From Theobroma cacao (Eukaryota; Streptophyta; Magnoliopsida; Malvales; Malvaceae): 64,000 nt of DNA. The translations under genes were made by a program, and so were the position numbers. The stretch spans positions 25,036,325-25,100,324 of the forward strand of contig NC_030858.1 of NCBI RefSeq assembly GCF_000208745.1. The letters are read 5' to 3'. The notes under the pieces were generated by a model that worked only from the letters and a program-made list of their open reading frames with translations, made no database searches and was not told the DNA's origin. This document shows positions 32,483 through 54,529 of this stretch, in pieces (position 1 is the first letter of the stretch; every line of letters starts with the position of its first letter).

Positions 32483-32644
32483 GATCCAAACGAGGAATCG
32501 GTTGTGATGAATGGAAAGCTTGGCTAATAATGTGAAATCAGAAATCCTTGATACGGTGATGAATTGAAGGGAGAAAAATGTGAATCCAAAGCAGGAAATG
32601 GTCCTGCTATAACAAGCCATATGTGAGACGGCTGTGGCAAGGTA

Positions 32645-33110
32645 GAGTTTAAAGTTTGTGAAACGTCATGTTGGGAATGTGTGACACGCTAGCGTTCACA
32701 GTTGGTGAGACGTCATGGAGAGAATCTGTGACACGTCAAAGTTAAAAGTTGGTGACACGTCATAGTGGGAATCCGAGACACGCCAGCGTTCAGAGTTAGT
32801 GAGACGCCATGGAGGGAATTTATGACACACCAAAGTTCAGAGTTGGTGACACGGCATGGAGGGAATCTGTGACACGCCAGTGTTCAGAGTTCATGAGAGG
32901 CCATGGAGGGATTCTGTGACATGCCAGAGTTAAGAGTTGGTGACACGCCATGGAGGGAAGCTGTGACACTCCAGAGTTCAAAGTTGGTGACACGCCATGT
33001 TTAGAGTGTGTGACACGACATTGCTTGAAAAGCTGACACGCCATGGTCATAGTTTAGAGTGTGTGACAAGGCATTGCTTGAACAGCTGACACGTCATGGT
33101 TTGAAATAGA
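32645..33110. repeat. Tandem repeat class alpha (GTGACACGCCA)
   Basis: Degenerate array of ~28-30-bp half units, two per ~58-bp unit, each beginning GTGACACGCCA or GTGACACGTCA and continuing with 'tggagggaat' or 'gagttcagagttg'. It lies immediately left of the head of MULE copy A. A reverse-strand open frame here (~33050-32820) only reflects the repeat. Confidence 0.7.
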
Positions 33111-33589
33111 GAGAGGAAAAAAAAAGTGGGCAGTTAACGTGGCAATCATGGTAATCGTTTGGACTTCCACTAAATTAATTCCCCTTACTGAAACAAATAA
33201 ATAAGAATATTATAAGGCCATTTTTCATTTTAAACAGTTATTTTTCAGAATTTCTAACGTCTGTGTGATTCATTTCTCATTTTCACCGATACCGGAATGT
33301 TCGAGAAGGCTCTTTGTAAGCATAACGACACCACAACACCAGCAACAATTTCGGCTATGAGTGAAGAGGTCAGTGAGTCTCAAATTAAAACATTCTCGTG
33401 TTCGTTAATTTTTTACTTTTTTGCTGGGTTTGTTTGATATGTTCGTGTTTTTTGTTTTCTTTTGCAAATGTTGAGACTGTGTTTTCTTACTAGTTTGATG
33501 GTTTTTGGGGTTAAGTAGTAGTGGTTTTAGGGGTTTGGGTGTTTACCGTGTCACGCCATTATTATTATAGTTAGTTATTGGCGTGGCGT

Positions 33590-33870
33590 GTCAGCGTTAG
33601 CGTGTGACAACATTTGACTCGATATGCATGGCGTGTGACAACATTTGACTTGATATGCATGGAGTGTCACAACATTTGATTTGATATGCATGGCGTGTGA
33701 CAACATTTTACTTGATATGCATGGTGTGTCACAGCATTTACTTGATATGCATGGCATGTCATAACATTTTACTTGTTATGCATGGCGTGTCACAACATTT
33801 TGCTTGCTATGCATGGCGTGTCACAATATTTTGCTTGTTATGCATGGTGTTTCACAACATTTATTCCTTA
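33590..33870 (+). repeat. 31-bp tandem array 1 (GCATGGCGTGTCACAAC)
   Basis: About 8-9 copies of a 31-bp unit whose core is TGCATGGCGTGTCACAACA, the rest being T-rich (CATTTTACTTGTTA). It is preceded by a conserved ~120-bp flank that also precedes arrays 2 and 3. It sits between the putative first exon (ending MSEE at ~33368) and the next coding block of copy A, hence probably intronic. Confidence 0.8.
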
Positions 33871-36179
33871 TTTATGTCTTCAGTATACCTTGTTGCACAT
33901 TACGGCTTAACTCACTGGTGCATGTGTGCCATGTTTTACAGATTTAACGTAGACAGTATGAGGATCTTAACAGTTTACTGATCATGTCGAGGGAGAAGTG
34001 GGTGATCAACGTCACAATTAACACCCACTGTAAGTGGTCGCAGCTGCATTACATCACAAAGACTCTCCAACAAAAGGGGGAGTACGATGCAGTTAAGCGT
34101 ACGTGCTTCGAAATGCTCTTGGACGTCTATCCACAAGGGTACTTTTGCGTCGGTCTCTTGCACAGCATCATGATTCGCCGGATCACTAAGAGCCAATCAA
34201 TGGACCACGAGCTATGATTTGCCATTAGTAAGAGCAAGGCGCTGCTATCAAAGTAAGAGTTTTGCCTTATCACCGAGCTGAAGTTTGGTCCAATGCTTGA
34301 TGTGTTCAGACGATCGTACAAGGTTACTGCGGACGAAATTCATGCCAGATACTAGAACGGGCAGGAGAGCGTTAAGCTGCAGGCTTTGCTTGATACGTTC
34401 CGCGGGGGCAACTTCCAACGACCAAGAGACGCGACCAAGATGGCACTCGTCTTGATCGCGAATAACATTTTATTTGGTCAAGACTACTGTAGACGGGTGA
34501 CGCCTTGGTTACTGTCATTGGTGGAGGACATCGACGCTTGGAATGTCTTCCCATGAGGGCACTATGTTTGGAAGCTGACCTTGGACTACCTTTTGAAGGG
34601 GTTCGAAAGTGCCTGACTCAAGCATGACAAAGAAAACTCGGTTACGCTACAACATTTACAGATTCGCATGGGTGATACAGATAATATCACGTAACATTTT
34701 TCAGTTTCTTTTAGAAAAAATAATTTATGGCTGCACTCGTTTATGACTTACAGTCTGATAATGGTTACATTTGACTTGCAGTTCTGGGTAATGGAGGCAA
34801 TTTCGACCCTTTGAAAAATAGTTGCCCCTTCTGGTCCGAAGGACAATGTCTACCCACAAATGTACAAATGAGATTGCAATCAGAAGCCAAAAGACTTCTA
34901 CAAGGCATTTCAGAAGTTAGAGTCATCTAAGCATGTGAGTGAACAGCTGCTAATATTTGCTTTGTAATTGTATAATAATTTTCCCTACTCGATAATCATA
35001 ACATTTTATTTGTTTATTTACAGTTGTAGGCACTGGAGACATTGGAACCCACCACAGATGAGGCCCTCCGAGAGTATTTTGTGGACCTTGATGTCTCGTT
35101 ATCGAAGGGTCACGGGTACGTGCCAATAGGGCACATGGAGGATCGGTTGGATTGGAGCTTAGGTGCAAGGCAAAAATGAGAAGCTTGAAAGGGAAAAGAG
35201 CCTCTGGTGGCACGAAGCGGATGCCCACCGCCGCTGCTTTAGTTGATGAGTTGTCGAGCCTTGAGTTGATGGACGAAGGGGACGACCATGGTCAAAGCAG
35301 TGAATAGCCGATAAGGACAGTTCTAACGGTTTTGTGTTCTCTAATTCCATATGTGATTATTGAATAACATATCTGTGTTTGAAGTTGGACCATGCGACGG
35401 CAGCTCCAGAATCACCCACCGATCCTCCTCAAACTCACAGTGGAAACGACCCGTTGATAAGATCGGTTCTAATGGTTTATGTTCTACATTTCCACATATG
35501 TTTATCGAGTAACAAGGTAATTTCTGTTATTACAGTTTACGAAAGCGACGATAGGTCCTCAAGCACCTATCGGTCCAATTCCATCACAGACTGCTAACGA
35601 GCCGCCGATAAGGATATTAAAGTTGTAACAATTAATGTTCAACAATTCCATACATGATTATTGAATAACATAGTTATATTTGTTATTGCAGTTTACGGAA
35701 GCGACGACAGGTCGTCAAGCACAGATCGGTCTGGCTCCACCACAGACTGCTAACAAGCCATCGGTAAGGATATTAAAGTTGTAACGGTTAATGTTCAACA
35801 ATTCCATATATGATTATTGAATAACACAGTTATATATGTTATTGTAGTTGACCCAGTCGAGAGGAGTCAATGATGGAGCAGTACTACTCGCTAGCTCCGA
35901 CGGATCATGCGCAAGCATGAAAAAAGGATGTTAGAGCTGAAGGCTTCACTTCAGTCATTGACTCTAGCAATGCAAACGCTTGAGGACCGTATCGTTGCTT
36001 GGATTCTTGATGGCCTTAAATCACAAGTATGTTTCTATCTTCGCTTGTATTTTGGTGGTTTATGTTTAGCAACTGCTTAGATTGTGTTTTCTTGCTGGTT
36101 TGATGGTTTTTGGGATTAAGTGGTAGTGGTTTAATTGGTTTTTGGTGATTAGTGAGTCAGGACATTTGTATTATAGTTA

Positions 36180-36520: not shown

Positions 36521-38043
36521 TGGCATTTTATGAGCTAACTAACGATTTTTCCCATTTTGTAGGGCGGTCCATCTCACGGTGCTAGTTTAGAGCACGATGA
36601 TGCTGATGATGGGCAGCATCATGAACTTAGTGTTCACATTGATGATGACGTTCTTGGTGCTGACGGAGAGCACGTAACTCATGTCGATGACATCGTCGAT
36701 GAAGCTATGGCAGTGGATGTCACCCTTTAATCAGATGATGTTGAAAGAGAGCATGTTCATTTGCCCGAGTCCATTATCAATGCATTTGCTGGAAGGGAAG
36801 GGGACCCTGACTCAGTCGTGGCTGAAGAAGAGCATCTTCCTTTGGCCGATGCATTCTTCGAGGCAACAGCAGGAGCTATCGTTCTTTATCATCAGAGCAC
36901 TCCTGATGCAGTTGAGACGCGATCATCATCACCAAAGTCATATGCTGTCCATCATGGTGCAATAGAAATTTCAGATCCAACTGAGCGAGCATGGCTGAAA
37001 ATGACGAGAAAATACATGGCAAGCCCGTACGTCGACCCTTTAGTGAACCGTCGAGATGTGAAGGATACAATCGTAGAAGCCTACGAAGCTTTCAAGAAAG
37101 ACGGGTTCGCGAGGTAAGCTCATAAGTAACATTGCAAATATTATTTTTTAATGAAACATTAATCCACCAAGACTTATGAAATTCATTATGTTACATATGT
37201 AGGCGTAACGTTGACTCTTAGGGGATCAAGGGGCTAACTTTTTCATAACCTTAGAGGATCCCAATGAGGAAATGCCAAGTGAACATATCGACGTGTGCCT
37301 CAGCCTACTCTGCAAGGGAATGACAGGACCGAAGTCGAAGCTGTACACTACCCATGCATGCGTGGTTGACACGACATTCTTCGTAAGTTTATTTGAAAAT
37401 TGTTCAATCCTATAAATACTAAGTTTTTATTGCATGAAGTGTAAGCTAATGTTTACACGTTTCACAGGACAACATCCATATGCTACACACGAAATTTGCA
37501 TTGTGGTTTCCAACAGAAGATGCCTAGGCCACAATGCAAATTTCAAATGAGTTGCGGGGGTACGTGGAGGCTGAAAGGCCGACATACGGTAAAAAATGAG
37601 AAGATGTGGATTTCATCCTCGCGCCTTGCAACGTTGGTGGGCATTGGGTGGTTGCGAAGATCGACTTGGTGAGGTGGACGATCAAGGTGCTAGACTCCGT
37701 AAGAACTTCGGATGCTAAGGATAATGGAGTTCGTGCGGGTCAAATGACACCCTTGACGACAATGATGCCAATCATCTGCGACCAAGCCGGTTATTTCAAC
37801 AACAGATGTCGGAAGAGACGGGATTTGATGCCAATACCATTGGATATTCATTTGCCAAAAGCTAAAGTGCATCAACAGAATGATAGTGTCAGCTGCAGTA
37901 TGTTCATGATAGGGTACATGGACCATATTTTATAATCGGAACAGATCAGAGTTAAGTAGAATATGATTGCAAAAATGCATCGGTAATACGCTCTAGAAAT
38001 TTTTTCCAACAGTTGTGAGAGCAAACCCTGAACATATCGGCCC

Positions 38044-38260
38044 TTGTTTGTACATTTTTTTTTATATAGAATTATTTTTATACAATTAATTTTATACACA
38101 ATTTTTTTGTATACACAATTTATTTTATACAATTCATTGTATACAGAATTAATTCTTTTTGTATACACAATATATTTTATACAATTATTTTTATACACAA
38201 TTAATTTGATACCAAGAATTTTTTTTTCTTTTGTTTACACAATATATTTAATTTGATAAA
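38044..38260. repeat. AT-rich tandem repeat (TTTTATACACAATT)
   Basis: Irregular repeats of TTTTATACAATT/TATACACAATT immediately after the Ulp1 gene end. Open frames here on both strands are repeat artefacts. Confidence 0.7.
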
Positions 38261-38269
38261 CAGTCGTAA

Positions 38270-38700
38270 AAAGTCAGTGTGTGACGCCATAAATCTGCTA
38301 CTAGTCAGTGTGTCCCCACATACATCTGCTTTTACTTAGCGTATCACCCCATATATCTGTAATAAGTTAATGTGTCACGTCATAAATCCACTAACACTCA
38401 GTGCGTCAGCCTATAAATTTGCTTCCACTCAGCGTGTCAGAATAATTGGGCCAGCAGTGTCACGTCTTAAATCTGCAGATACTCAACGTGTGACTCTAGA
38501 AATCTGCTTCCACTCGACGTGTCATAACAATTGGGCCATCTCGTGTCACCCCACGATATTGCACCAAGTCTGGTGTGTCATGCCATAAATCTGCTTACAC
38601 TCAGCTTGTCACGACTGTGACACGGCAAGATTCAGAATTTATGACACGCCACTTTTAGAATATATGACACGATTGTGACACACCATTGCTTGAACGGTTG
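38270..38700. repeat. Tandem repeat class beta (GTGTCAC...ATAAATCTGC)
   Basis: Roughly ten imperfect ~30-35-bp units with CAGCGTGTCACGCCATA followed by AATCTGCTTCCACT. At its right end (38610-38700) units switch to the alpha type (GTGACACGCCA). It lies just left of the head of MULE copy B. Confidence 0.7.
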
Positions 38701-39414
38701 ATACGCCATGGTAATCGTTTGGACTTCCACTGAATTTAAAAAAAAATCGACAGTTAACGTGGTAACCGTTTAGACTTCCACTGAATTAATTTATAAATGA
38801 AACGAATAAATGAGAATATTATAAGGCCATTTTTCATTTTAAACACTTATTTGTCAAAATTCCTAACGTCTGTGTGATTCATTTCTCATTTTCATCGGTA
38901 CCGGAGTGTTCGACAAGGCTCTTTGCAAGCGTAACGACACCACAGCAATAACAACAATGTCAGCTATGAGTGAAGAGGTAAGTAAGTCTTAAATTAAAAG
39001 ATTCTTTGGACCATTTGAAATCCATCTCCCGAAACTCTTTGTCCCTCCATACACCTCATCACCCAATAAAGGAATTCCCATGTACTTTGCATGAGCACGA
39101 ATCTACTTCACAAGCATGACAAAGAAACAGATTATGAACATAAATTAGAATGTCATGAGTTCTTGTAGTTGACAATTACTTAGCTCGAATCTATGGAAAA
39201 ACAAAAAAGTTACACCTGTATTCGTTAATTTTTTACTTTTTTGCTGAGTTTGTTTGATATGTTCGTGTTTTTTGTATGTTTTGTTTTGCAAATGTTTAGA
39301 CTGGGTTTTCTTGCTGGTTGGATGGATGGTTTTTGGGGTTAAGTCGTAGTGGTTTTACTAGTTTTTGGTGTTTATCGTGTCACGACATTGTTATTATAGT
39401 TAGTTATTGGCGTG

Positions 39415-39745
39415 TCAGTGTGACAACATTTCATTTGATATGCATGGCGTGTGACAACATTTGGCTTGTTATGCATGGCGTGTCACAACATTTTACTTGT
39501 TATGCATGGCGTGTCACAAAATTTTACTTGTTATTCATGGCGTATCACAACATTTGACTTGATATGCATGGCGTGTCAGAATATTTTACTTGTTATGCAT
39601 GGCGTATCACAACATTTAACTTGTTATGCATGACGTGTCAGAACATTTTGCTTGTTATCCTTGGCGTGTCACAACATTTTGCTTGTTATGCATGGCGTGT
39701 CACAACATTTTGCTTGTTATGCATGGCGTGTCACAACATTTATTC
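39415..39745 (+). repeat. 31-bp tandem array 3
   Basis: About ten units of the 31-bp repeat (core starts 39441, 39472, 39503: exactly 31 bp apart). Same orientation as arrays 1 and 2. The long open frames across it exist because 31 is not a multiple of 3, so three units make one 31-codon cycle. Confidence 0.85.
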
Positions 39746-39856
39746 TTTATTTATTTCTTCAGTATACCTTGTTGCACATTATGGCTTAACTCACTGGTGC
39801 ATGTGTGCCATGTTTTGCAAATCCAACGCAGACAGTATGAAGATCTTGACGATTTA

Positions 39857-40453
39857 CCTCTCCAAGAGACGGGGGTTTACATGCAGTGAAGCATACAAAC
39901 TTCGAAATGCTCTTGGAGGTCTATCCACAAGCTTCATCTATCAAACTTTGACCTTGCTTGCACGATTGAGTTGTTTGTAGCCCAGTACAGTTTTCTTAGT
40001 ACCTCAAGGGAAGCATACATGGGTTTTTCAACCCTCTGCATGAAGTTTGGAAACTCACTTGGTTTTAGGGATCGAGGCATCTCAACTGATGCTCTTATCT
40101 TTGCAAAATCAACAGTCATAGAGTGAAGAGTTGCCAATTCTAGGCTGGACCTCGAATCATGGACCTAGAATTGGCAACTCTTCACTATATGGCTGTTGAT
40201 TTTGCAAAGACAGGAGCACTAGCCAAGATGCCTCGATCCCTGAAACCAAGAGAGTTTTCAGACTTCATGCAGAGGGTTGACAAACCCATGTGTGTTTCCC
40301 TTGAGGTGCTAGGAAAATTGTACTGGGCTACAATCAACTTAACCTTGCAAGAAAGGTCAAAGTTTGATAGACGAAGCTTGTGGATAGACGTCCATGAGCA
40401 TTCTGAAGCACGTACGCTTCACTGCATTGTACTCCCCTATCTCTTGGAGAGTC
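39857..40453. repeat. 600-bp inverted repeat with RDR-gene fragment in both arms
   Basis: Arms 39857-40144 and 40164-40453 (about 290 bp each, ~85-90% identical by eye) around a 19-bp loop. Inner part: an RNA-dependent RNA polymerase-like fragment, read on the plus strand at 40159-40375 (LELATLHYMAVDFAKTGA, MPRSLKPREFSDFMQRV, LEVLGKLYWATI) and on the minus strand at 40137-39934 (VDFAKIRASVEMPRSLKP). The pattern VDF.KTG...P..LKP..FPDFM is characteristic of the C-terminal part of plant RDR proteins. Outer part: ~75 bp of the MULE's own exon (copy A 34065-34138), direct on the left and inverted on the right. A read-through transcript would form a long double-stranded stem. Confidence 0.8.
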
Positions 40454-41092
40454 CTTATGATGTAATGCAGCTGCGACCACTTACAATGGGTTTTAATATT
40501 GAGTATGGATAAGCATCTGAGAGCCGAAATCCCCCAAATAGCAATTATAATATTAGGTTAGTTTATTTTTCTTATAACAAGTGTTACTTTTTTAAAACTT
40601 CCCTTAATTTTATTAATTTTGTGCCGTGTCACCAACAAGACTGCAACAATTTGGCATGTCATGCCAAGTCTGCATGCACTCAGCGTGTCACCACAATTGG
40701 CCCTTGCCATGTCACTCGCCAAGATTGCAAGAAGTTAGCGTGTCACGCCATAAGTCGACTAACCGATATTGGTGAAATTTAATTACTCATGAAATAGAAA
40801 GGAATTTCATTGTAAGAACATAAACGGTTAAATCAAATGAAATAGAAAAGAATTAAATCAAATCATTAATTGTTTAAAACAAGTGGTAATAAAATGTGAC
40901 AAATGGGGTAATAGTATAGGGACTTTGCAAGTCTATTCAATGTTCAAAACTACGGACAAAATGAAATGAATACTCAAATAATATATCTACAAAATTAATA
41001 AAAAAAAATAAAGACTCATCTACAGGAGAAAACTAACAAACACTGTGTTAATATCAAAGTCTTCATCCACAACTTCCTCTGGTATTATCAAA
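40454..41092. other. Non-coding MULE sequence with short beta-type repeats
   Basis: 40454-40491 continues the inverted copy of the MULE exon. 40620-40760 carries about four class beta units (GTGTCACGCCATAA forms). The remainder is AT-rich. No coding feature. Confidence 0.5.
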
Positions 41093-41213
41093 GTCTTCGG
41101 CCCACTTAAATGGGTTTATCTCTTAATATTGGTAGACATTCCATGCTTGTTGTTCCTTCATAAGATTTGTCTACCAATATTAAGAGATAAACCCATTTGA
41201 GTGGGCCGAAGCC
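41093..41213. ncRNA. Near-perfect 46-bp-arm foldback, candidate hairpin RNA
   Basis: Arms 41093-41138 and 41168-41213 pair with only about two mismatches around a 29-nt loop. The central shared block reads TTTATCTCTTAATATTGG. The size (~120 nt) and the long perfect stem resemble a young miRNA or siRNA hairpin, or a tiny MITE. It lies just beyond the 3' end of the minus-strand transposase gene. Expression is unknown. Confidence 0.5.
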
Positions 41214-41284
41214 TATGATAAGACCAAAGGAAATTGTGAATGAATGTATGTGAGAAAGGTATTGCACATGGGTTACAAATTTAG

Positions 41285-43879
41285 TTAGGTGGACAAGCTG
41301 TTTTCATCCACAACACACCCTACATTTTCAGACATTGTCCTTCGTATTGGACAATTGTTGCGTATGTGACCGACTTGTTTACAACTTGAACATGCTTTGG
41401 GTCTGCGCACTCGTGGAGGCACCGATTGACTTGGAGATGGTGCCGGATTTATGGATGGAACTGCAAATAGGGATGGGTAATTTTGTCTGTTATGCCCGTA
41501 CCTCTTGAATTGCGAACATCTCCTTGCTCGACTGCCTTCACCAGTTGATGGAATCCTTCTCCTCCTAGGTCTCCCGCTTGGCCTCGCTAAGGTGATGGCA
41601 AGACGACAATTTGTTTCACATAAGGAGGGATGTCTCACTCACTAGGATGCCCTACCGGCCTAATGGATCCCAAATAACCCTCCACCAAAACAGTTGTCTT
41701 GTAGTAGTCAGCGCAAAATTCAATGGCTTCACGTTTGCATTTATTGAAAATTACAATAAACTCAATCTTCAAGCACAATGTAAATGTTATGTCAATTAGG
41801 GTTCAAATAAGAAATAAAGATATTCTGACCTTATTGTTGCAATGGCATGGCTGCATGGCAGTAAATTTGTTTGGAACTCACAACATGAACACGTCTTCCT
41901 GGACAGGTTTACAAGTCCATCCATCCTCCCGTCTTTCACTTCGAACTCCACTCAATTGATAGGCTTAACTACAAAGCGATGTGCATCATTAAACTGTTTG
42001 CTCAACTGCCTAGCAACCCAAGGGCTGAGGGGCGTGGTCACCTTGATGGCCTCCTCGTACCAATCATGGAACCAATGCTGGAACATGTCTCTAATGAACT
42101 AGATCAAAACAGTGATTGGCATTTGTCTTGCATGCTTCGAGCATGAGTTAACACATTCCGCTATGTTGGATGTCATCATTTGGTATCGCCTTGCTGGTGA
42201 ATATGCACGTGTCGATCTTTCAAGCCCTTTTCTCATCAGGTCAGTGTGGGCTTTCATGTGAATATGCGTGAGCTAGTTCATATGTTTGTTGAAATCGGAA
42301 ACCTTATAGCAATCTCGTGCAAGGGTGCAAATCATACAAACGTCGTTGCGCTTGAACTTGTTTTAAAGTTTTTTTTCAAGTGGTAACCCCATGAACCATG
42401 GTCCACTTTTGGGTATGCATTTTAGATTGCTTTCTTAATGCCAAGATGCTGATCAGAAATGAACATAGTATTTTCAGAACAACCAACCGCATCACGCAGC
42501 TTGCTAAGAAACCACGTCCACGAGTCTTCATCCTCAACATGGCAGATGCCAAACGTAACTGGATATACGCACTCGTTCGTATCTTTACATACAAAGACAA
42601 ACAAAACACCTTTGAACCTGCCTTTCAGATGTGTCGCATCAATTGTAACCGTAGGATGCATTACATCCCTAAACCCCTGAATATAAGCCCCATATGATCA
42701 GAAACAATATTTAAATCTTTCTGCCTTATCAGTAGCTACTGCAGTCATTGTGCCAGGATTTTTTTGTTCCAACATATAAAAATACAAGAGTAGTAGTTGA
42801 AATGAATCCTCTAGTGGCTAGAAAACAAGCCTCTTCACATACTCCTTCGTTTGCCAAGCCTTACCATACAAGCATTCCAATCCCCATTGAATCCTCATCT
42901 CACAAATTATGTCCTTAGGTCTCAATGCTACTCCATTAGCTCAAAGCTTGTGTGACATAAGTTCACCAATTATCTTCACACTCGTAGTTGGAAATCGCCC
43001 TTGCAAACGATCAACAGTACAAGTGTGTTCTATGTGGAATGTCCGAACTTACTAATATTCTCCTCTGTCGGGTAACTTTGTTGCACGCACACTGAACTTG
43101 CATGCCTTGTCCTTGCAACCAACCTTATAACGACCTTTACATGACCTTTTCACTCTTATCGAAAACTTCTCTTTTATAACCAACATGTTCAAAGCTCGTT
43201 TCAACTCGACCTTCGACGAAAACATTCTTCCTTTGTATAAGCGATCATCGGCACATGTTGACTCCTCAATGGTAATTGTTTGGAAAGGGAACCTTTTTGC
43301 ACCTACAATTACCCATGTACGAGATATCCCTAAATTTTCCCTTTCCTGATCACTATCATCGAGCAATGTATCAAGGGAACGAATCCCGTTTTCACCAGCG
43401 ATGGGGTTATTATATATGGGGTCATCACACTAAACATCTCCTACATCAACACCTCCAACAGGTTCCGTTTCGCATTCAACATTATTGCAAATTGGAATGT
43501 CACTGTCATAAAGGCAATCATCGTCTGAACTGTCATCTTGCCATTGTTCAAACCCATCATTTGAAATGTGATCAAATCTATCTTCACTAGCAACGAACAA
43601 ATCCTCATTTCCTTTATCAAATGCAGTATTATCCTCCAACGTCGCAGTGTCACCCTCCAACCTCACATTGTTGTCCTCAAGTGTCGTATTCTCATTTGAT
43701 AATGGCAATACACACTTTACAGTTTCACCCGATCGTTGCATTTTTTTGACACAAACAAGTAATTGGTTTGATACACATCCTGATCGAAATTGTGCAACCA
43801 ACTGTTTTGTGAATGTCGTTTGTCTACCAGGTTGCACAAATTCTTGTGCATACCTTAATTGCCATTGTTATGGATTACG
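41285..43879 (-). pseudogene. mudrA-like MULE transposase, C-terminal and central part
   Basis: Continues (minus) the N-terminal part at 54030-54441 after the copia-IV insertion. From 43879: QPGRQTTFTKQLVAQF; an acidic linker; the MuDR N-terminal zinc region (LYKGRMFSSKVELKRAL; GRYKVGCKDKACKFSVRA, ~43250-43080); the MULE transposase core (MHPTVTIDATHLKGRFKG, YPVTFGICHVEDEDSWTW, MFISDQHLGIKKAI, ~42660-42420), with the first two Asp of the DDE set; WVARQLSKQFNDAH; a SWIM zinc finger (KTCSCCEF...LPCSHAIA, ~41890); and CCHC knuckles (CSQFKRYGHNRQNYP; CSSCKQVGHIRNNC) near the end at 41285. Multiple stops and frameshifts make it inactive. It would have cut and pasted the MULE. Confidence 0.8.
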
Positions 43880-44953
43880 TGTTGGTCCCGATAATATGTG
43901 CTAAATGGGGGGTGAATAGCCCAATTTGGCTCTTAACAATATTGGAAACTAATTTTCAGAACTTAAGAAAATAAAAACAGAGTATACGATGCACAGCAAT
44001 TTAGAGTGGTTCGGTCCAAGACCTATATCCACTACCTTAATTATCCAACCAAGGATTTTCCCACAAATCCACTAAGAATCAGTGAAATTCACAAGCTTTC
44101 ACTAAGCTTTACAATGGCTTTTACAAGGCTTAGCCAAAACCTTTTACACTAGTTTTTCACGGGCTCAACTAAAACCCAAAGTGGTTTTCCGAGGCTCAAC
44201 CACAACCTTTAACAATCAAGCTATCCCAAGCTTGAACAACCCTTTAGAGTGACTCCCTCACTCCAAGAATACAAGAGAAGTAGTAAAAGAAGGTACGTAT
44301 GATCATTGATTGATTTGAGTGGTACAAGATTGAGTGTTAAATACAAGTGCAAGGAGTAGGCGTTTAAGTGCAGACAAATGCAGTGAAGCTTTTCTAGTTT
44401 TTCAACTTTCTATAGCTCAAATTTTTTCAAGGCTTCTAAAAACTTGTTTCTAATTGTTGGAAGACCTTTTTATACTTGGAGATGCAACTCTGATGGCAAT
44501 TTAACAGTTTATGATCGTTGGAAATATTTGAAGATGAGTTATAGCCGTTAATCTGTCTTGTAGTGCTCTGGTTCAAATTGCAGACAGAGAGCTCTTAGTC
44601 GACTAACTTGGTCGATTAAGTTGGTTCTGTTTCTGGTTTGCAGATCATGGCAGAAAGCACTTAGTCAACTAACTTGATCGACTAAGTTGGTTCTATTTCT
44701 CAAACTCTTCAGCCCGTCATTCCTCCAATTTTGAAACTTGGTCAACTAATATTTTTCCTTGTTTCACCAATAAGCTTCCACTTTGTTAGATAGTTACATC
44801 TTGTTATTTTTATTCCTCTTTTTCTTTTGATATATTCTTTGACAGATTGATTTATTAATTTCATACATTAATTTTCCTGCACACTCAAGTAAAGATATTA
44901 GACATACATAAATGGGAATGTTTTATTATCATAAAAAACTGATAGAGCCAACA
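43880..44953 (-). repeat. 3' LTR of copia-IV
   Basis: Plus-strand termini TGTTGGTCCC and GAGCCAACA. It contains palindrome pairs at ~44593-44690 (CTTAGTCGACTAAC; GGTCGATTAAG; CTTAGTCAACTAAC; GATCGACTAAG). Confidence 0.93.
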
Positions 44954-44970
44954 ATCTCCCCCTTTTTGAT
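44954..44970 (-). other. Polypurine tract of copia-IV
   Basis: Minus strand ATCAAAAAGGGGGAGAT directly before the LTR start TGTTGGCTC. It is the expected primer site for plus-strand DNA synthesis. Confidence 0.85.
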
Positions 44971-45729
44971 GATAACAAAACATTCTTTGATTGATAGCAT
45001 AGTGTCCTTTTAGTCTTTTTAGTTTTTTGCAGAAAATGAGGATTGCTCCCCTTAAGTGTATGCATATTTTGCTTACTTTATTCCATCAAATTTTATTTTT
45101 TTCATATAGAAAATGAAGTTATACACATGTGCAGCAATATGAAGTGATTTGCAGCAAGTATTAGCAAATCATCATTAAACTTTCAGCAGTAAGTGTTGAT
45201 AGATTTTCATAAATGTTTCAGTAGTTGTCAACAATTTATTGATTTCAGATTTTGTCTACATCATTCATGTTTCAATTGATATACTATGCACCCCATCTAT
45301 ATCTATTTACAAACAAAAATCATTTATACTGCCATAACAAAAATCATTTATCAGCATCAATATCAGCATAGCATTAACAGATTTTGTTCATGACAGTAAA
45401 AATACCAAAATGACAAAATATCAGTAGACTTCAATTTGTAGCAGTTAAACAACATAGACATTTCAGCATTCACTTTTCACACACGACTATATAAACAACA
45501 GAGTTAACCTTAAGTGTTCACGTGGCACAAATAACAATTAATTAAAAATATTCTGAAATTGCCCCTGGACAATTTTGCTTCCTATCTCCTATTTTTCTAA
45601 GTTCCTACTCCTGATTTTGCTGTCTTTTCTTTCTTAGGTTCTTGGTTCCTCCACCCTGACATTTTTTTTTTAATTCTTGCACCCATTCTCTGGTTCCTGT
45701 ACCCATTCTACTCCCCCTTTTTGTCAGCA

Positions 45730-47703
45730 TCAAGGGAAAAGGCTTCTATCATCTGATGTGTTAGAGGGTGAAGATTCAGTGTCATAGAAAGGGTTTAGGG
45801 GAAAAGGAGAGGGCTCTCGGAGAGGTGATGACTGTTTAGAGGAAGGTTCTGATAAGGACTTGTCTAAGACAGAGATTGGATTCTGAGGAGAAGAGGCTGA
45901 AACTGGTTTGGATTTCTCTACCAACCTAGAAGACCTTTTTCTCTTGAGAAAAGCTGTCTTGGTTGCCATAGTCTTCTTGCCTTTGGTTGGTGGTTTTGCC
46001 TCAGTTGGTGGTGCTGCAGTGGCTTTGGCTTTTTTCGCTTTTGCCTTTACTCTAGTAGTTGATGTAGGTTTCTTTCCTTTTCCTACATCTTCACCATCAT
46101 TTTGAGTTTTTGTTCTGGCAGTGTCTTTTTTAGCTTGTCCCTCCTTAACCATTTGGTGGAAGATATCCATGATGGAAACTTCCTCTGAATTTGGAGGAAA
46201 GGTCTGTTGTTTCTTTGTTTTTGAACCAACCACTTCTGTCCCTTGTTTTGAATCATTTTTGCTTTGAGGTTCAAGAGATGATGTCTTGGCTAGCTTATGA
46301 ACCCCTTGAGGAGAGTCCTCAGTTTGCAGAACAGGACTGGTAGACTTGTAGGTGGAACCTTCAACTTGAAAGCCAGAACTTTCAATATGAGGAGCAGATT
46401 TTTCTACTGGCTCAGTTAAACCTTCAGCTCCTTGCTGTGCTGGTGCAGTGCTAGATGTTACAGTGTTGTCTACAGCCACAAGTTCAAATGGAATGCTTTC
46501 TTTCTCCTTCAGCTTGTTTTCCAACTCAGTGATTTTCTCTTCAATTTTCTATATCTTTTCTCCGTGGTCAGTCAACTTTCCATCAATCCTCATGAGCAAA
46601 TTAAAAATTACTTTATTTGAGAATCTAGATAGGGCTTATTCAGGTTGAGTAGGTAGGTTGTCTTCTTTTCTTGGACTAATCTTGGGGGTCTTAATGAATC
46701 TTTCCCCATCAAGTATATACCCCATTTTAACCAAGCTCCCATAATAAATAGCTTGATCTCTGGTTTTTACCAGGTCCATATCGTACTTCTTTGCCCATAT
46801 TCCCTTCTTCTGCACAAGGAATGTAATTACATTCCCATACGACATATTAACCTTATCAAGTTTGTAGGCACTTCTCATTTTTTCAATCATAAATCTTTCC
46901 AGATTCAGAGGTAGCTCGTTGAAGGCTTGCTCCATCAGCTAGAGGTCTTTGAGGCTAATGTGGCTAAGGCTTCCACTTCTACCTTGAATGTTGGCTACTA
47001 TAAAATAGTGTAAAATCCTAATCTGAGGACTAATTATCAGACTTAAAATGTTTTTTGAAGAATATTTTTCTTTTCTTCCAATGATGATCTCCCACAATAA
47101 TGATGGATCATATTTTTCAAGGAGCTCATACTCTCCTTATTTGCATTCTATTTCCAGCAGGTTTCCTAAATCTTCAGCAGTCATAACAAATTATTTTCCA
47201 TTCAGATAAACATTCAAACCATCTTCATCATAATCATCAGAATCTATTAATTCCTTTCTTTTCAAAGCAATACTAGAATAGAATTCTTTAACCAGACTTG
47301 GACTATAAGATCTATTCTAAAAGGTGTTGTAACCTTTTAGTTTTAGTTCATCAAAATACTCAAATAAACTAGTTTGGATTTCTATATTTTCCTTAAAACT
47401 CTTCCAATCAATAAATTTTTCATAGGAGATTGGTGCATTCTCGATATTTTTGAACCTATATTCATGCAACTTATCCTTAAACTTCGAAGAAGAAGAACTG
47501 GTACCTTTGTGGAGTGAGGGTTCTGTTTTTTTCTTCTTGTTAGTTTTCTGCTTCTTTTCTCTTAGTTTCTCAGATATTTCTTTGACTGAAGTAGGCATGC
47601 TTTTCTGTTTCTTCTTCAAACTTTCTATTCCTGTTCCTTCCTCTATTGGCTTTTTTCATTTCTTTTTCTCTGATATCTTTTTACTCTGAAATGTTTTAGC
47701 CAT
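45730..47703 (-). pseudogene. Copia-IV extra ORF after pol, decayed
   Basis: Starts MAKTFQSKKISEKKK at 47703 (stop soon after, K*KK). The Lys-rich region continues to KGTSSSSSKFKDKLHEY. A globular domain follows (FKNIENAPISYEKFIDWKS; LNVYLNGK; LEIECK; SLLWEIIIGRKEKYSS; IRILHYFIVANIQGRSGS; LMEQAFNELPLNLERFMIEK) down to ~46640. Next is a coiled-coil-like stretch (LLMRIDGKLTDHGEKI, KIEEKITELENKLKEKE), then a Ser/Thr/Lys-rich tail with TRVKAKAKKAKATAAPPTEA, ending RSLFP at 45730. Five or so stops. It is colinear with 660-2406 in copia-I. The shared domain is of the 'putative plant transposon protein' type; whether it is env-like, accessory or captured is not known. Confidence 0.7.
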
Positions 47704-48030
47704 ATTGGTTCTAGAAATTTCTGAGGGTTTGAGTCGGTTTCAAAGGCAAATAGGAAGATTTAGGTTTTTGTTTTTAGAACAACGGGTTTCAAGGGAGAGG
47801 AAAGAAGAGGTAGTCAGCAGTTATAACTAAGAAAAACTGCTCACATTCCCTTAAGTACTGCCCTACTTTTATTTCTTCATAATTTTAAATTTCCCTCTAA
47901 AATTTTGGTTATTTACCTTTGGCAGTATTTCTTCATTCTTTTTGCACCCTGTAAACCAAATTTTTACCACATTTTACTCTTCTTTCTCTAAACTGACTGA
48001 GTCTTATTATTTAATGTTGTCAGACCACTC

Positions 48031-48061
48031 TTAGTTGACTAAGATTTCCTTAGTCGACTGA
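48031..48061. promoter_or_regulatory. Paired palindromes between pol and the extra ORF (copia-IV)
   Basis: TTAGTTGACTAA (48031-48042) and TTAGTCGACTGA (48050-48061), in the same position and spacing as in copia-I (2714-2745) and matching the LTR boxes. They lie ~330 bp upstream of the extra ORF. Possible internal promoter element; function inferred. Confidence 0.45.
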
Positions 48062-48098
48062 ATGCACTCTGTTTTCTATGTGAGAGCCAAAGGTTTTC

Positions 48099-51000
48099 CT
48101 ACAATTCCTTCATACTAATCATCCCTAAATTTCTTCTAATTTTACAAAATTTATCTTCATTCAAAGGTTTGGTAAAAATGTTTGCTAATTAATGTAAAGT
48201 GTTCACAAATTCTATCTTAATATCATTTTTCACTACATGGTCTCTAATAAAATGATGTCTTATTTCAATGTGCTTTGTCCTAGAGTGCTGCACAGGGTTT
48301 TTTGATATCTTGATTGCACTTGTGTTATCACAATATATTGGTACATTATGCGTAATTATTCCATAGTCTTTTAATTGTTGCTTGATCCAAAGGATTTGTG
48401 CACAGCAACTACCTAATGATACATATTCAGCCTCTGCTGTAGATAATGCCACTGAGTTTTGCTTTTTGCTGGACCAAGACACAAGCATGCTTCCTAAAAA
48501 TTGGCACGTTCCACTAGTGCTTTTCCTATCAGTTCTGTTACCAACAAAGTCAGCAACTGAATATCTAACTAAGCTAAGAGTTGAGTCTCTAGAGTACCAT
48601 ATTCCTAGTCCTTGAGTGTCTATGAGGTATCTAAAAATTCTCTTAACAATTGTTAGGTGTGTTTCTTTAGGTTGTGACTGAAATTTAGCACACAAGCACA
48701 CACTAAACTAAATATCTGGTCTACTTGCTGTTAAGTAGAGAAGAGAGCCGATCATACCTATATAGAGCTTTTGATCTACATCTTTACCTTTTTCATCTAA
48801 GTCGAGTTTGGTGGATGGACTCATTGGTGTGGAAATTGATTTCAACTTCAGCATATCAAATTTCTTGAGCATATCATGGGTGTATCTTTCTTGGTTGATG
48901 AAGATTCCTTCCTCACTTTGTTTGATTTGAAGACTAAGGAAGTAACTCAACTCTCCCATCATGCTCATCTCAAATTCACCTTGCATTTTCTTAGCAAAGT
49001 TCTTGCATAAAGCCTCATTAGTTGCACTAAATACAATGTCATCCACATATATTTGCACAATAATTAAATCATTTAGATATCTCTTAATAAACAATGTAGT
49101 ATCGATGCTACCTCTATCATACCCTTTTTCAACTAGAAATTTTGAAAGCCTCTCATACCAAGCTCTAGGAGCTTGTTTCAATCCATACAAGGCTTTATGA
49201 AGTTTGAAAACATGATCAGATTTTTCAAAGTCTTCAAAACCAGGTGGTTGTTCTACATATACTTCCTCTTGAATTAATCCATTTAAGAATGCACTTTTTA
49301 CATCCATTTGGAACAATTTAAAATTCATGGAACATGCAAAAGCTAGCAACAACCTTATGGCTTCTATCCTAGCAACAGGAGCAAAGGTTTCATCATAATC
49401 TATTCCTTCCTCTTGATTATATCCTTTTGCAACCAGCCCAACTTTATTTCTAACTACATTTCCTTGCTCATATATCTTATTTCTAAATACCCATTTTGTT
49501 CCAACAATAGGGTGATTTAAAGGTCTAGGTACCAATGACCATACATAACTCCTTGTGAATTGATCAAGTTCTTCTTGCATGGCCATTATCGAACTTTCCT
49601 CTTTTTCAGCTTCTTCAAAGTTTCTAGGTTCAATTTGAGATATAAAAGCTGAAAACTCACAAGTTTCTCTAGTTGCTTTCCTAGTTTTAACTCCTTGTGA
49701 AATGTCACCTATTATTTGGTCTTATGGGTGATCTCTTACAAATCTCCAACTCCTTGGTAGATCATCATGCTGATTTTCTACTCTTTGCATATTTTCTAGA
49801 GGTGGAGTTTCATTTTCTCTTCTAGGTGAGCTTTCTTCATTATTTTTGTTGTTTTCTAAGCTCATTTCCTCCATTTATTTTCTAGGACTTCTACATCATC
49901 ATCATCATCATGAACTTTTTTTTGTAAAGCATTTGACTCATCAAAAACTACATGGATTGATTTTTCAAAGGTTAAGGTCCTTTTGTTAAAAACCCTATAG
50001 GCCTTTGAGTTTAATGCATATCCTAAAAATATTGCTTCATCACTCTTTGCATCAAACCTCCCTAGGAGTTGTTTTCCATTTTTAATACAAAGCACTTACA
50101 ACCAAAGCTCTTAAGGTGAGAAATATTTGGCTTCCTACCTTTATAAAGTTCATATGGAGTCTTTGAAATCAAGGGTCTTATTGAGACTCTATTAAGAATA
50201 TAAGCTGCTATATTTACTGCCTCAACCCAAAGATATTTAGGTAGGTTGTTCTCACATAGCATGGTCCTAGCCATTTCTTTTAAGGTTCGATTTTTCCCCT
50301 CTACAACTCCATTTTGCCGGGGTGTTCTAGGTGCAGAAAAATTGTGATCCAACCCTTTTTCATTGCAAAATTTTTCGAACTCATCATTTTCAAATTTTCC
50401 TCCATGATCACTTCTTATGCTAACTATGGCTAGTCTTTTTTCATTTTCTACTTTCTTCCAATGACTTAAGAATGCTTGAAGAGCATCATTCTTATGAGCA
50501 AGAAAATACACCCAAGTATAATTAGAATAGTCATCAACTATTACAAAGCCATAAGATTCTCCTCCTAAACTAGTTGTGCTTATTGGACCAAATAGATCAA
50601 TGTGTAACAATTCAAGAGGTCTAGATGTTGACACTATCTTTTTGGTCTTAAAGGATGTTCTAACTTGTTTTCCTAGTTGGCAAGCATCACATATTCTGTC
50701 ATTTTCAAATTGTAAATCCGGCAACCCAACTGCTAAACTCTTTCTAATCAATTTTGACATAGTATGCAAACTTACATGTCTAATCTTCTATGCCATAACC
50801 AGTTATTATTTTCAGCATTTACAACAACACATACTTCATTATTTACTTCAAGATCTTCGAGAAAAATCACATACATATTCTTTAATCTTTTTCCTATAAA
50901 TGAGATTTTATTTGTACTCACATCTATCACTTCACACTTAGTTGAATCAAAACATACTCTAAATCCTTTATCACATAATTGACTAATACTTAGTAAATTA

Positions 51001-52897
51001 TGCTTTAAGCCTTTAACCAACAACACATGATTGATTTGAGTCTGGAAATTCTTACTAACCGTACCTATACCATGGATTCTACCTTTTGAATCATCTCCAA
51101 AGGATACGGTTCCTCATTTTCTCTTATCTAGCTGAGCAAACAGCATTTCATGTCCTGTCATGTGTCGTGAACAGCCACTATCCAAGTACCAAGGCTGTTT
51201 CTTCTTGAGTTGAGCTCTAAAACATGCCTTCTTTAAGTCCAGCTCAACCTACAAAACAGAATTTCTATTTTTCTTTATAGGTACCCATACTTTGATGGGT
51301 CCTTAAGTGTTAGTTGCAACAAAGGATCCCTTAGGAACCCAGATTTTCTTAACTTTCTACATTATTCTTTTCTTAAAACAATCATATGATAAATGACCAT
51401 ATTTACCACAATTATAACATCTAGGTAATGATTTAGCTGAATTTTTATTGTGGTATACATATCTTTTTGAAGATTCATTTTTCAAACATTTAAAAGCTGT
51501 GTTTCATCAAGAATTATTTGCAAAGCTTCGGACTTGTTTTCCAGCTCTTGTTTTAAAACCTCAAAGTCTGTTTTTGAGTGTTCTAACTCAACTTGCAAAA
51601 TATTTCTTTGTTAAAAAACAGAAGTAAATTCTTGTTTGATTTATTCCAAATCATTTTCAAGTAATGCAGCCTTTTTCTTTAATGATTTGTATTTTGAAAA
51701 AAGTTTTTCAAATTCATCATAAAGGCACTCATACTCATCTTGTAAATCATCATAAGAATTAATGCAGGGGGATGAGGATACCTCTGTTTCATCCTCTTGT
51801 GCCATTAAACAGATGTTTGCTCTTTTCTCATATTTTTCATCATCAGTTTCAGAGTTTGATGTGTTACTATCTGACCATGCAGTTGCCACCATTACTTTCT
51901 TGGATTTCTTATTTTTCTTAGGAGTTTCATATTTCAGCAATGGACACTCGGACTTGAAGTGACCAGGTTTCTTGCATTCGTAGCAGATGAGGTCCTCTTT
52001 TTTGTTGGAGTTAATTTTGTTTTTGTTTTTCCATGAGGTACCTTGGTCTTTCCTGAAACCTCTTCTAGTTAGCCTTCGGTTTCTTCTGCTCATTAGCTTT
52101 CTGAATTTTCTTGCAACCAGAGTTAATTCTTCATCATCATCACAGGAAAGCTCTTCCAGCTCTTCTTCAAGGATGTTGGCTTTAAGTGCAATACTATTTT
52201 TCTTTTCCTTTGCTTCCCTTCAGTCTTCTTCTTCTTCTTCCTTAAGCTCCAGCTCATGAGTAAGAAGAGAACCGCAAATCTCATCAAGTGTGATGATGTT
52301 CAGATCTTTAGCCTCTCTAATGGCAGTCACTTTTGGCTTCTAGTTTTTTGGTAAACTCCTAAGCAATTTCTTAACTAATTCATGTTCAAGGATAAGCTTG
52401 CCTAGCTGACTTAATTTATTTGTGATGTTTGTAAACCTATCAAACATGCTGATGATGTCTTCACCAGGCTCCATTTTGAACATTTCATAAATATGTGTTA
52501 AGAGAGCAACTTTAGACTCTTTTACTTGAGAAGTCTTTTCATGGATTATTCTAAGTTTTTCCCACACTTGTTTAGTTGTTGTACAGCTTGAGACTTTGTT
52601 AAATTCAGTGGGGGTTAATGCACAATGCAATGTATTGATAGCCTTAAAGTTTATTTGAACTTTCTTAGTTTCAGCCTCAGTCCATTCAGACCTTGGCTTG
52701 GGCATCAACTCATTTGTCACTACATTCACGGTTGAGGGCATAAAAGGTCCATCAGTTATGATATCCCACATTTCATAGTCTATAGCCATAATATAGATTG
52801 ACATTCTTGTGCTCCAATAAGGGTAATTAGAGCCATCAAATAGAGGTGGTCTGTTTGTTGATTGTCCCTTAGCAACTATGGTTTTTTGTTGAGCCAT
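48099..52897 (-). pseudogene. Copia-IV gag-pol polyprotein, nearly complete but broken
   Basis: Gag begins MAQQKTIVAKGQSTNRPPLF at 52897, with DYEMWDIITDGPFMPS. The zinc knuckle CYECKKPGHFKSEC is near 51980; a second knuckle region near 51410 has lost residues. A protease remnant is near 51170. Pre-integrase and integrase lie at 50830-50060 (LWHRRLDM; ICDACQLGKQVRTSFK; LLHIDLFGPIS; SIRSDHGGKFEND; NGVVEGKNRTLKEM: the D, D, E set is visible). RT occupies 49586-48708 (FLNGLIQEEVYVEQPPGFED; VQIYVDDIVFSATNEAL) and RNase H 48701-48189 (STAEAEYVSLGSCCAQ), ending near 48099 (MISMKEL). Stops and frameshifts separate the blocks. RT alone is open over 292 residues. Confidence 0.9.
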
Positions 52898-52941
52898 TTG
52901 GATCCTCCCAAAGGATGTTAAGCCTTAAAAACAGCGAACTA

Positions 52942-52953
52942 GCTTTGATACTA
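52942..52953 (-). other. Primer-binding site of copia-IV (mutated)
   Basis: Minus strand TAGTATCAAAGC in place of TGGTATCAGAGC: two G-to-A changes. Two bases from the LTR at 52956. Confidence 0.8.
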
Positions 52954-52955
52954 AT

Positions 52956-54029
52956 TGTTGGTCCCGATAATATGTGCTAGAGGGGGGGTGAATAACACAA
53001 TTTGGCTCTTAACAATATTGAAAACTAATTTTCAGAACTTAAGAAAATAAAAATAGGGTATAAGATGCACAACAATTTAGAGTGGTTTGGTCCAAGACTT
53101 ACATCCACTACCTTGATTATCCAACTAAGGATTTTCTCACAAATCCACTAAGAGCCGGTGAAATTCACAAGCTTTCACCAAGCTTTACAATGGCTTTTGC
53201 AAGGCTCAGCCAAAACCTTTTACACTAGTTTTTGATGGGCTCAACTAAAACCCAAAGTGGTTTTATAAGGCTCAACCACAACCTTCAACAATTAAGCTAT
53301 CCCAAGCTTGAACAACCCCTTAGAGTGACTCCCTCACTCTAAGAATACAAGAGAAGCAGCAAAAGAAGGTAGCTATGATCATTGGTTGATCTGAGTGGTA
53401 CAAGATTGAGTGCTAAATACAAATGCAAGGAATAGGTGTTTAAGTGCAGACAAGTGCAGTGAAGCTTTTCTGGTTTTTCAACTTTTTATAGCTCAAATCT
53501 CTTTCAAAGCTTCTAAAAACTTGTTTCTAATTGTTGGAAAACCCTTTTATACTTGGAGATGCAACTCTGATGGCAGTTTGGCAGTTTATGGCAGTTGAAA
53601 ATAGTTGAGGATGAGTTTTAGCCGTTAATCTGTCTTGTAGTGCTTTGGTTTAAATTGTAGACAGAGAGCTCTTAGTCGACTAACTTGGTCAATTAAGTTG
53701 GTTCTGTTTTTGGTTTACAGATATTGGTGGAGAGCCCTTAATCAATTGACTTGATCGACTAAGTTGGTTATGTTTCTCAAACTCTTCAGCCCACCGTTCC
53801 TCTAATTTGAAACTTGGTCAATCAATATTCTTCCTTGTTTCACCAATAAGCTTCTTCCTTGTTAGATAGTTACATCTTGTTATTTTTATTCCTCTTTTTC
53901 TTTTGATATACTCTTTGAAAGATTGATTTATTAATTTCATACATTAATTTTCTTGCACACTCAAGTAAAGATATTAGACACACATAAATGGGAATGTTTT
54001 ATTATCATCAAAAACTAATGGAGCCAACA
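52956..54029 (-). repeat. 5' LTR of copia-IV
   Basis: Same length (1074 bp) and ends as the partner LTR at 43880-44953. Palindrome boxes lie at ~53670-53770. The right end is followed by the target duplication TTACG. Confidence 0.93.
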
Positions 54030-54441: not shown

Positions 54442-54529
54442 AATTGAAACCCCACTGAAATTTTGAAAAAAAAAATTTTGTCAATCATTTTACACAATAC
54501 ATGCCGTTATAAAAAATTTATCAGTCATG

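What the first reader, a model, noticed from the sequence alone, without database searches (positions are those of the whole stretch)
39857..40453. Transposon-borne hairpin carrying an RNA-dependent RNA polymerase fragment
Seen: two ~290-bp arms in inverted orientation around a 19-bp loop. The inner two-thirds encode an RDR-like segment (VDFAKTG, MPRSLKPREF, DFMQRV, GKLYWAT); the outer part is the MULE's own exon. Known: MULEs capture host gene fragments (Pack-MULEs), and inverted repeats such as Mu killer make siRNAs that silence MULEs. RDR enzymes are central to transposon silencing. Inference: transcription from the MULE head would give a long dsRNA processed to siRNAs that match a host RDR mRNA, a possible anti-silencing device. 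The MULE-exon portion would at the same time target the MULE. I know of no described case of this arrangement.
Basis: partly seen in the sequence, partly recalled or inferred. Interest (0 to 1): 0.88.

Follow-up and report, generated by a model that had tools for sequence, protein, structure and literature searches.

The report
Mobile hairpin copied from gene RDR2
A cacao jumping gene carries, as a long fold-back hairpin, a piece of the plant's own RDR2 gene, which makes the RNAs that silence jumping genes; the hairpin sits at several places in the genome, so the element may be able to silence its silencer, but no small-RNA evidence has been seen yet.

Summary
The hairpin is real: arms 39858-40144 and 40164-40451, 87-88% complementary, 19-nt loop, folding far better than shuffles. 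The donor is RDR2, the polymerase of RNA-directed DNA methylation (RdDM). The outer 74 bp of each arm come from an exon of the element's own DUF1985/Ulp1 gene. DUF1985 also occurs in VANC, the anti-silencing protein of Arabidopsis VANDAL MULEs. The window is Theobroma cacao or a close relative.

New: the hairpin is multicopy. Eleven T. cacao protein models carry it (one is this locus); six seem to lie in one assembly; ten show at least part of both arms. P0018 repeats the order DUF1985-Ulp1 gene, second gene head, hairpin. The hairpin probably formed once and spread with the element.

Best explanation: transcription from the duplicated head gives an RDR2-independent dsRNA whose siRNAs match host RDR2. 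Fold and copies are shown; transcription, siRNAs and knock-down are inferred. The window copy looks decayed; the arms show neither coding selection nor co-evolution. Closest precedent: rice miR820, in CACTA transposons, targets the RdDM gene OsDRM2. New variant of a known kind.

The parts
39858..40144 (+). left arm of the inverted repeat (on + strand: element exon in sense, then RDR2 in antisense)
40145..40163 (.). 19-nt loop
40164..40451 (+). right arm (RDR2 in sense, then element exon in antisense)
40165..40365 (+). RDR2-derived piece, sense; 52 of 67 residues identical to Hibiscus RDR 898-964 (P0011), 51 of 67 to Gossypium (P0015)
39943..40143 (-). the same RDR2 piece in the other arm; its sense strand is minus
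   Evidence: PF05183 E 2.8e-9; extent inferred
39858..39931 (+). piece of the element's DUF1985-gene exon (matches 34063-34137, 84%)
40377..40497 (-). longer inverted piece of the same exon (reverse complement of 34017-34137, 89%)
38674..39857 (+). duplicated 5' head of the DUF1985/Ulp1 gene, upstream of the hairpin: 38674-39005 matches 33062-33396 (80%), 39218-39857 matches 33398-33978 (78%); ATG at 38957 and GT donor at 38978 read by eye; the first head's AG acceptor (CAG/ATT) is changed here (CAAAT), the next AG is at 39830-39831
39418..39741 (+). 31-bp tandem repeat, 10.5 copies, in the presumed first intron; related arrays at 33600-33862 and 36201-36504, inverted at 54527-54774
33062..34700 (+). 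first gene head and DUF1985 coding region (has in-frame stops; PF09331 partial over 34356-34553, E 5.9e-4, below curated cut-off)
37600..37935 (+). Ulp1 protease (C48) part of the same gene
   Evidence: PF02902 E 1.3e-14
41285..43867 (-). MULE transposase pieces in several frames, convergent with the Ulp1 gene: DBD_Tnp_Mut 43052-43429, MULE 42422-42697, SWIM 41796-41951, zinc-finger matches below cut-off 41285-41638
43880..54029 (-). copia-type LTR retrotransposon inserted at the upstream edge of the transposase frames; LTRs 43880-44953 and 52956-54029 (91% identical), target duplication TTACG at 43875-43879 and 54030-54034. That the MULE goes on beyond it is inferred from the inverted 31-bp array
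41062..41244 (.). second hairpin near the transposase 3' end (77-nt arms, 91% complementary, 29-nt loop), with no sequence match to the first in the window self-comparison

Best explanation
A MULE in the Theobroma lineage has a gene with a DUF1985 domain (also found in VANC anti-silencing proteins) and a Ulp1 domain, convergent with a transposase. It captured about 200 bp from the end of the RdRP domain of RDR2, in antisense, next to an exon of a duplicated head of its own gene. An inverted duplication then made a ~290-bp-stem hairpin. Several copies exist, at least two of them with the element's own flanks (shown by gene models). Transcribed from the duplicated head, the hairpin would fold on itself without needing RDR2, be diced, and give small RNAs against host RDR2 mRNA, weakening RdDM when the element is active; the outer 74 bp would also feed back on the element's own gene (inferred). 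This window's copy looks like an old, decayed member; younger copies would be the active ones (inferred).
For: Fold. RDR2 identity: the four significant PDB matches are RDRs, two of them named RDR2; of 261 hits the best six (P0011-P0016) are Hibiscus and Gossypium proteins at 90-91% over 97% of the piece, and every numbered RDR name visible among the 120 rows listed is RDR2; one row is named QDE-1. The piece starts ~80 residues downstream of the catalytic DLDGD (catalytic role recalled), so it cannot encode an enzyme. Multicopy: 10 of 10 hits and P0018 are T. cacao; 10 of these 11 show sequence from both arms, P0003 only an inner stub of one. P0018 repeats DUF1985, Ulp1, second head and both arms; P0003 runs from the hairpin into the same flank and transposase-tail antisense as window 40472-40555 and 41407-41565. 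The capture junction RSK(F/I)DR-x-SLWID is shared by the window, P0001 and P0018. Hairpin siRNAs need no RDR2: Mu killer silencing is unimpeded in mop1, the maize RDR2 homologue mutant (PMC8224964, passages). RDR2 loss compromises re-silencing of VANDAL21 (PMC10398659, passages). No sign of coding selection: 19 of 22 changed RDR2-part codons nonsynonymous.
Against: No small-RNA, transcript or host RDR2 nucleotide data could be consulted, the genome search did not complete, and no promoter scan was run. The first head's splice acceptor is altered in the second head. Arms differ by 37 substitutions and 1 indel; only 107 of 194 21-nt windows of the RDR2 part have 2 or fewer mismatches between arms. 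The window's right arm is only 52 of 67 residues identical to Hibiscus RDR2. Peptide-level test over 9 loci: arms of one copy are no more complementary than arms of different copies (p 0.32), so nothing indicates that pairing is maintained by selection. The window copy has stops in its DUF1985 frame and an LTR element at the edge of its transposase. Spread of the hairpin could be hitch-hiking. Copy evidence rests on gene predictions; absence from other species was not tested with DNA.
Confidence: 0.42

Rival explanations
1. Passenger: the MULE captured an RDR2 piece by chance, an aberrant gap repair folded it back, and copies spread by hitch-hiking. Chromatin silencing keeps it untranscribed; it has no effect on RDR2.
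For: Arms drift as non-coding DNA; no within-copy co-evolution; the window copy looks dead. MULEs commonly capture gene fragments (PMC10004981 passages).
Against: The captured gene is one whose loss would help the element; sequence of both arms is seen in 10 of 11 models; a gene head with ATG and splice donor lies directly upstream. None of these excludes hitch-hiking.
Confidence: 0.36
2. Mu-killer-like self-silencer: the element-exon part of the stem makes small RNAs that shut down the DUF1985/Ulp1 gene, so the hairpin serves the host or limits the element; the RDR2 part is incidental.
For: Outer 74 bp of each arm match the element's own exon. Mu killer is a rearranged MuDR whose hairpin yields 21-22-nt RNAs that silence mudrA (PMC8224964 passages).
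Against: Only about a quarter of the stem is element sequence. Its arm identity is 82% over all 74 columns against 88% for the RDR2 part, though 87% against 88% inside the ungapped core, so this is weak. An element carrying its own silencer should spread poorly (argument, not tested).
Confidence: 0.12
3. Young MIR gene: the hairpin is, or is becoming, a microRNA locus by the inverted-duplication route and tunes RDR2 to the benefit of the host.
For: [quoted passage not shown]
Against: No Rfam match at gathering score over 36000-44000 (a new MIR family would not be in Rfam); stem still ~290 bp, typical of siRNA rather than miRNA precursors (recalled); multicopy and TE-borne.
Confidence: 0.07
4. 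Protein: the frames encode a short RDR2-like peptide or chimeric protein, as the public gene models claim.
For: Open frames in the RDR2 part of both arms; 10 T. cacao gene models, six of them named RNA-dependent RNA polymerase by NCBI.
Against: The piece lies beyond the DLDGD motif; arms differ by mostly nonsynonymous changes, 0.86 against a simulated neutral mean of 0.74; 8 of the 10 models join antisense and sense arms in one reading frame.
Confidence: 0.03

Closest known systems
miR820 in rice CACTA transposons, targeting OsDRM2 (PMC3459959, passages)
   Same: DNA transposon carries a stem-loop similar to a host RdDM gene; five copies reported; small RNA acts against a silencing component
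   Different: Other superfamily, other target (RDR2 makes the dsRNA; DRM2 methylates), a coding piece here against a stem similar to an intron there; long stem here; miRNA expression reported there, nothing of the kind shown here
Mu killer (Muk) of maize (PMC8224964, passages)
   Same: Rearranged MULE whose transcript forms a hairpin; includes the element's own gene
   Different: Muk targets the element itself; here about three quarters of the stem are a host silencing gene, and the hairpin is multicopy
VANDAL elements with VANC (PMC5735166 and PMC10398659, passages)
   Same: MULE with a DUF1985 gene besides a transposase, and tandem repeats in non-coding parts; VANC counters silencing and RdDM re-silences
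   Different: VANC also has DUF287, here Ulp1 instead; anti-silencing by the protein untested here; no hairpin against RDR2 in the passages read
Pack-MULEs (PMC10004981, passages)
   Same: MULE carrying a host gene fragment
   Different: Here the element also carries transposase and Ulp1 genes (that Pack-MULEs lack them is recalled), and the fragment is folded back
MIR genes by inverted duplication of the target gene (PMC10004981, passages)
   Same: Inverted duplication of part of the future target
   Different: Mobile and multicopy, with a long stem; no miRNA shown

Membership tests
Mutator-like element (MULE) | MULE/MuDR transposase domains | tested here: met
   PF03108 E 4.1e-12, PF10551 E 4.4e-14, PF04434 E 2.1e-8
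Mutator-like element (MULE) | terminal inverted repeats | tested here: inconclusive
   No convincing pair between 31.5-32.7 kb and 54.8-56.0 kb, only a gappy, A/T-rich alignment, and none in the wider comparison; that some MULEs lack them is recalled
Mutator-like element (MULE) | 9-bp target site duplication (length recalled) | not tested
   Element ends not defined
VANDAL/VANC-type MULE | DUF1985 domain gene besides the transposase | tested here: met
   P0018 PF09331 38.3 bits, cut-off 35.1; window piece E 5.9e-4, below cut-off
VANDAL/VANC-type MULE | DUF287 domain in the same protein | tested here: not met
   P0018, one gene model, shows DUF1985, a C48 peptidase below cut-off and RdRP, no DUF287 at E 0.1
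[quoted passage not shown]
   31-bp arrays at four places and a 47-bp array at 32644-32999 are present; binding untestable here
VANDAL/VANC-type MULE | sequence-specific loss of methylation | not testable with these tools
   needs plants
miR820-like TE-borne silencer of a silencing gene | stem-loop similar to an RdDM gene inside a TE | tested here: met
miR820-like TE-borne silencer of a silencing gene | multicopy within the TE family | tested here: met
   11 T. cacao protein models including the window's own; P0018, P0003 and P0001 also carry the element's flanks
miR820-like TE-borne silencer of a silencing gene | small RNA produced and target reduced | not testable with these tools
   no small-RNA data
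Mu killer-like hairpin | inverted duplication of the element's own gene | tested here: met
   outer 74 bp of each arm; a minority of the stem
Mu killer-like hairpin | hairpin small RNAs silence the element | not testable with these tools
   no small-RNA data
RDR2 (donor) | closer to RDR2 than to RDR1/RDR6 | tested here: met
   Best hits are Hibiscus and Gossypium RDRs at 90-91% (P0011 has the Pfam PH_RDR2 domain); every numbered name among the 120 of 261 rows listed is RDR2. No direct RDR1/RDR6 alignment was made

The most novel reading that the evidence does not exclude
A MULE family in cacao carries two anti-silencing devices at once, a VANC-like DUF1985 protein and a heritable RNAi hairpin against RDR2. 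The hairpin bypasses RDR2 and lowers it whenever the element is transcribed, and hairpin-bearing copies out-multiplied hairpin-less ones.
Probability: 0.15. Interest if true: 0.92.

Novelty: new variant of a known kind. Interest (0 to 1): 0.7.

Why it matters
RDR2 makes the double-stranded RNA that feeds plant transposon silencing. A transposon that carries and spreads a hairpin against it would show transposons using RNAi against RNAi, as miR820/DRM2 suggests in rice, but here against the RNA-making step and in a family that also has a VANC-type domain gene. It is testable at once with cacao small-RNA and transcript reads. It also suggests that several cacao gene models named RNA-dependent RNA polymerase are hairpin fragments of a transposon.

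Tried and rejected
Protein-coding reading rejected: piece lies beyond the catalytic motif and shows no coding selection. Co-evolution or gene conversion of arms tested at peptide level over 54 positions in 9 loci (8 of the 11 proteins plus the window; P0001, P0002 and P0003 were left out because their antisense stretch is missing or too different): not found. Spliced-cDNA origin of the left arm considered (the 33979-34062 gap): by eye no GT..AG ends, so taken as a deletion. Rfam: no match over 36000-44000 at gathering scores. TIR search gave only a gappy, A/T-rich alignment. Papers: ten library searches. Six bear on an RDR2-derived transposon hairpin (one search listed 15 of 26 papers), one on cacao MULEs, three on precedents (one search listed 10 of 513). 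In those listings no title or abstract start describes a transposon hairpin derived from RDR2. That covers only the open-licence library and those terms; passages, not whole texts, were read of six papers.

Not obtained: cacao genome DNA, cacao RDR2 coding sequence, small-RNA data.

Full report
OBSERVATION. The repeat finder gives arms 39881-40144 and 40164-40427 at 88%, with an outer continuation 39858-39881/40428-40451 at 83%; a gapped alignment gives arms of 287 and 288 nt with a single 1-nt indel and a 19-nt loop. Folded as RNA the stretch reaches -454.9 kcal/mol against -170.9 +/- 6.7 for 20 shuffles. Arms differ by 37 substitutions, 26 of them transitions; 14 of the 37 are G-U pairs in the + transcript, leaving paired runs of up to 52.

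DONOR. The right-arm frame matches RdRP PF05183 at the end of the domain (518-580 of 582, E 1.5e-9), the left-arm frame likewise (514-580, E 2.8e-9). In the PDB four chains match at E about 2e-16 to 3e-16: 7w82/7w84 (RNA-dependent RNA polymerase; 800-856 and 907-963) and 7eu0/7roz (RNA-dependent RNA polymerase 2; 909-971); the other eight rows, E 0.64 or more, are LRP6 chance matches. That these are maize and Arabidopsis RDR2 is my recollection; the table gives no species. A 69-residue piece searched against full-length proteins gave 261 hits, 120 listed; the best are Hibiscus (91%) and Gossypium (90%) RDRs, every numbered name visible is RDR2, and one row is called QDE-1. Identity of the window's own right arm is lower: 52 of 67 to Hibiscus, 51 of 67 to Gossypium. 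The piece begins about 80 residues after DLDGD. So the donor is RDR2 of a mallow-family plant. RDR1 and RDR6 were not aligned directly.

ELEMENT. The window holds a MULE: DBD_Tnp_Mut, MULE, SWIM and zinc-finger matches below cut-off on the minus strand (41285-43867), convergent with a plus-strand gene that ends in a Ulp1 domain (37600-37935, E 1.3e-14) and has a DUF1985 region around 34356-34553 (E 5.9e-4, below cut-off in the window; above cut-off in the relative P0018). A second copy of this gene's head lies at 38674-39857 (78-80% identical) with an ATG at 38957 and a GT donor at 38978; the acceptor used in the first head is altered, another AG is at 39830-39831 (read by eye; no promoter scan was run). 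The hairpin follows at once. The outer part of both arms is from the next exon of that gene: 39858-39931 matches 34063-34137 and 40377-40497 is the reverse complement of 34017-34137. So on the + strand one reads: element exon sense, RDR2 antisense, loop, RDR2 sense, element exon antisense. A copia-type element with 1075-bp LTRs at 91% identity and target duplication TTACG lies at 43880-54029, at the upstream edge of the transposase frames. An inverted 31-bp array beyond it, 54527-54774, suggests that the MULE continues there. Arms at 87-88% and LTRs at 91% agree with a hairpin older than that insertion, if rates are alike.

COPIES. The right-arm frame found 10 proteins, all T. cacao (10 of 11 candidates passed E 1e-3). 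Eight of the ten (P0001, P0004-P0010) join an antisense-arm peptide (MGLSTLCMKSGNSLGFRD or alike) to a sense-arm peptide, P0008 in the reverse order, so they are gene models drawn over hairpins. P0003 shows the sense arm and an inner stub of the other. An eleventh, P0018 (TCM_038703, 805 aa), covers in order DUF1985, the Ulp1 region, the second head with its 31-bp repeat frame, the antisense arm and the sense arm, aligning to window 33939-40392. P0003 goes on to 40472-40555 and 41407-41565, that is, into the transposase tail; its loop reads in the opposite orientation, as if the loop had flipped; P0001 shares the 40469-40558 flank. P0010 joins the hairpin to an NB-ARC domain. P0002 is the window's own locus or allele: its first exon is the right arm and the rest matches 56104-56624. 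So 10 of 11 models show sequence of both arms; P0002 shows one, but its locus here has both. The RDR2/element junction (RSK(F/I)DR, one residue, SLWID) is shared by the window, P0001 and P0018, which argues for a single capture. All this rests on gene predictions, so it is a lower bound for cacao and says little about other species.

MECHANISM. Shown: hairpin, donor, element context, several copies. From literature passages: Mu killer silencing is unimpeded in a mop1 (RDR2 homologue) mutant (PMC8224964) and MITE stems can be diced without RDR2 (PMC10004981); RDR2 mutation compromises re-silencing of VANDAL21 (PMC10398659); VANC proteins contain DUF1985 and VANC21 binds motifs that form tandem repeats (both PMC5735166). 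Inferred: transcription of the hairpin from the duplicated head, siRNAs against RDR2, benefit to the element. The outer part would at the same time target the element's own gene, a built-in brake or simply a cost.

AGAINST. The frames evolve without coding constraint (26 of 29 changed codons nonsynonymous over the core; RDR2 part 19 of 22, simulated neutral mean 0.74), which fits a non-coding role but equally a dead passenger. Within-copy arms are no more complementary than between-copy arms (mean minimum mismatches 2.0 against 2.2, permutation p 0.32; 8 proteins plus the window, 54 positions, a weak test from peptides). The window copy looks decayed. No nucleotide comparison with cacao RDR2 and no small-RNA data were available, and the own-genome search did not complete (12 tries).

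VERDICT. Real and more interesting than first described, because the donor is RDR2 itself and the hairpin is multicopy; but the functional claim is untested, and rice miR820/OsDRM2 (PMC3459959, passages) is a precedent for the idea. New variant of a known kind.

Noticed in passing
window 41062-41244: A second hairpin (77-nt arms, 91% complementary, 29-nt loop) at the 3' end of the transposase gene; origin unknown.
   Followed up: partly
window 43880-54029: Copia-type LTR retrotransposon, LTRs 91% identical, 5-bp target duplication TTACG; related stretches at 1.1-8.1, 11.6-16.5 and 17.0-20.8 kb.
   Followed up: partly
window 39418-39741, 36201-36504, 33600-33862, 54527-54774: 31-bp tandem arrays (GTGTCACAACATTTTACTTGTTATGCATGGC type) at four places in the element, the last inverted; they resemble in layout the tandem repeats that VANC proteins bind.
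   Followed up: partly
window 40159-40305 and 56104-56624: A public T. cacao gene model (P0002, named RNA-dependent RNA polymerase) joins the right hairpin arm to exons 16 kb away across the LTR element; it differs from the window at two residues (YA for CV), where it equals the left arm.
   Followed up: partly
protein P0010 (T. cacao, NB-ARC - like 10): Both hairpin arms precede an NB-ARC domain in one gene model: a hairpin copy next to or inside a resistance-type gene.
   Followed up: no
protein P0003 (T. cacao TCM_019665): Loop orientation is reversed relative to the window while the right flank is the same, as if the loop flipped by recombination between the arms.
   Followed up: no
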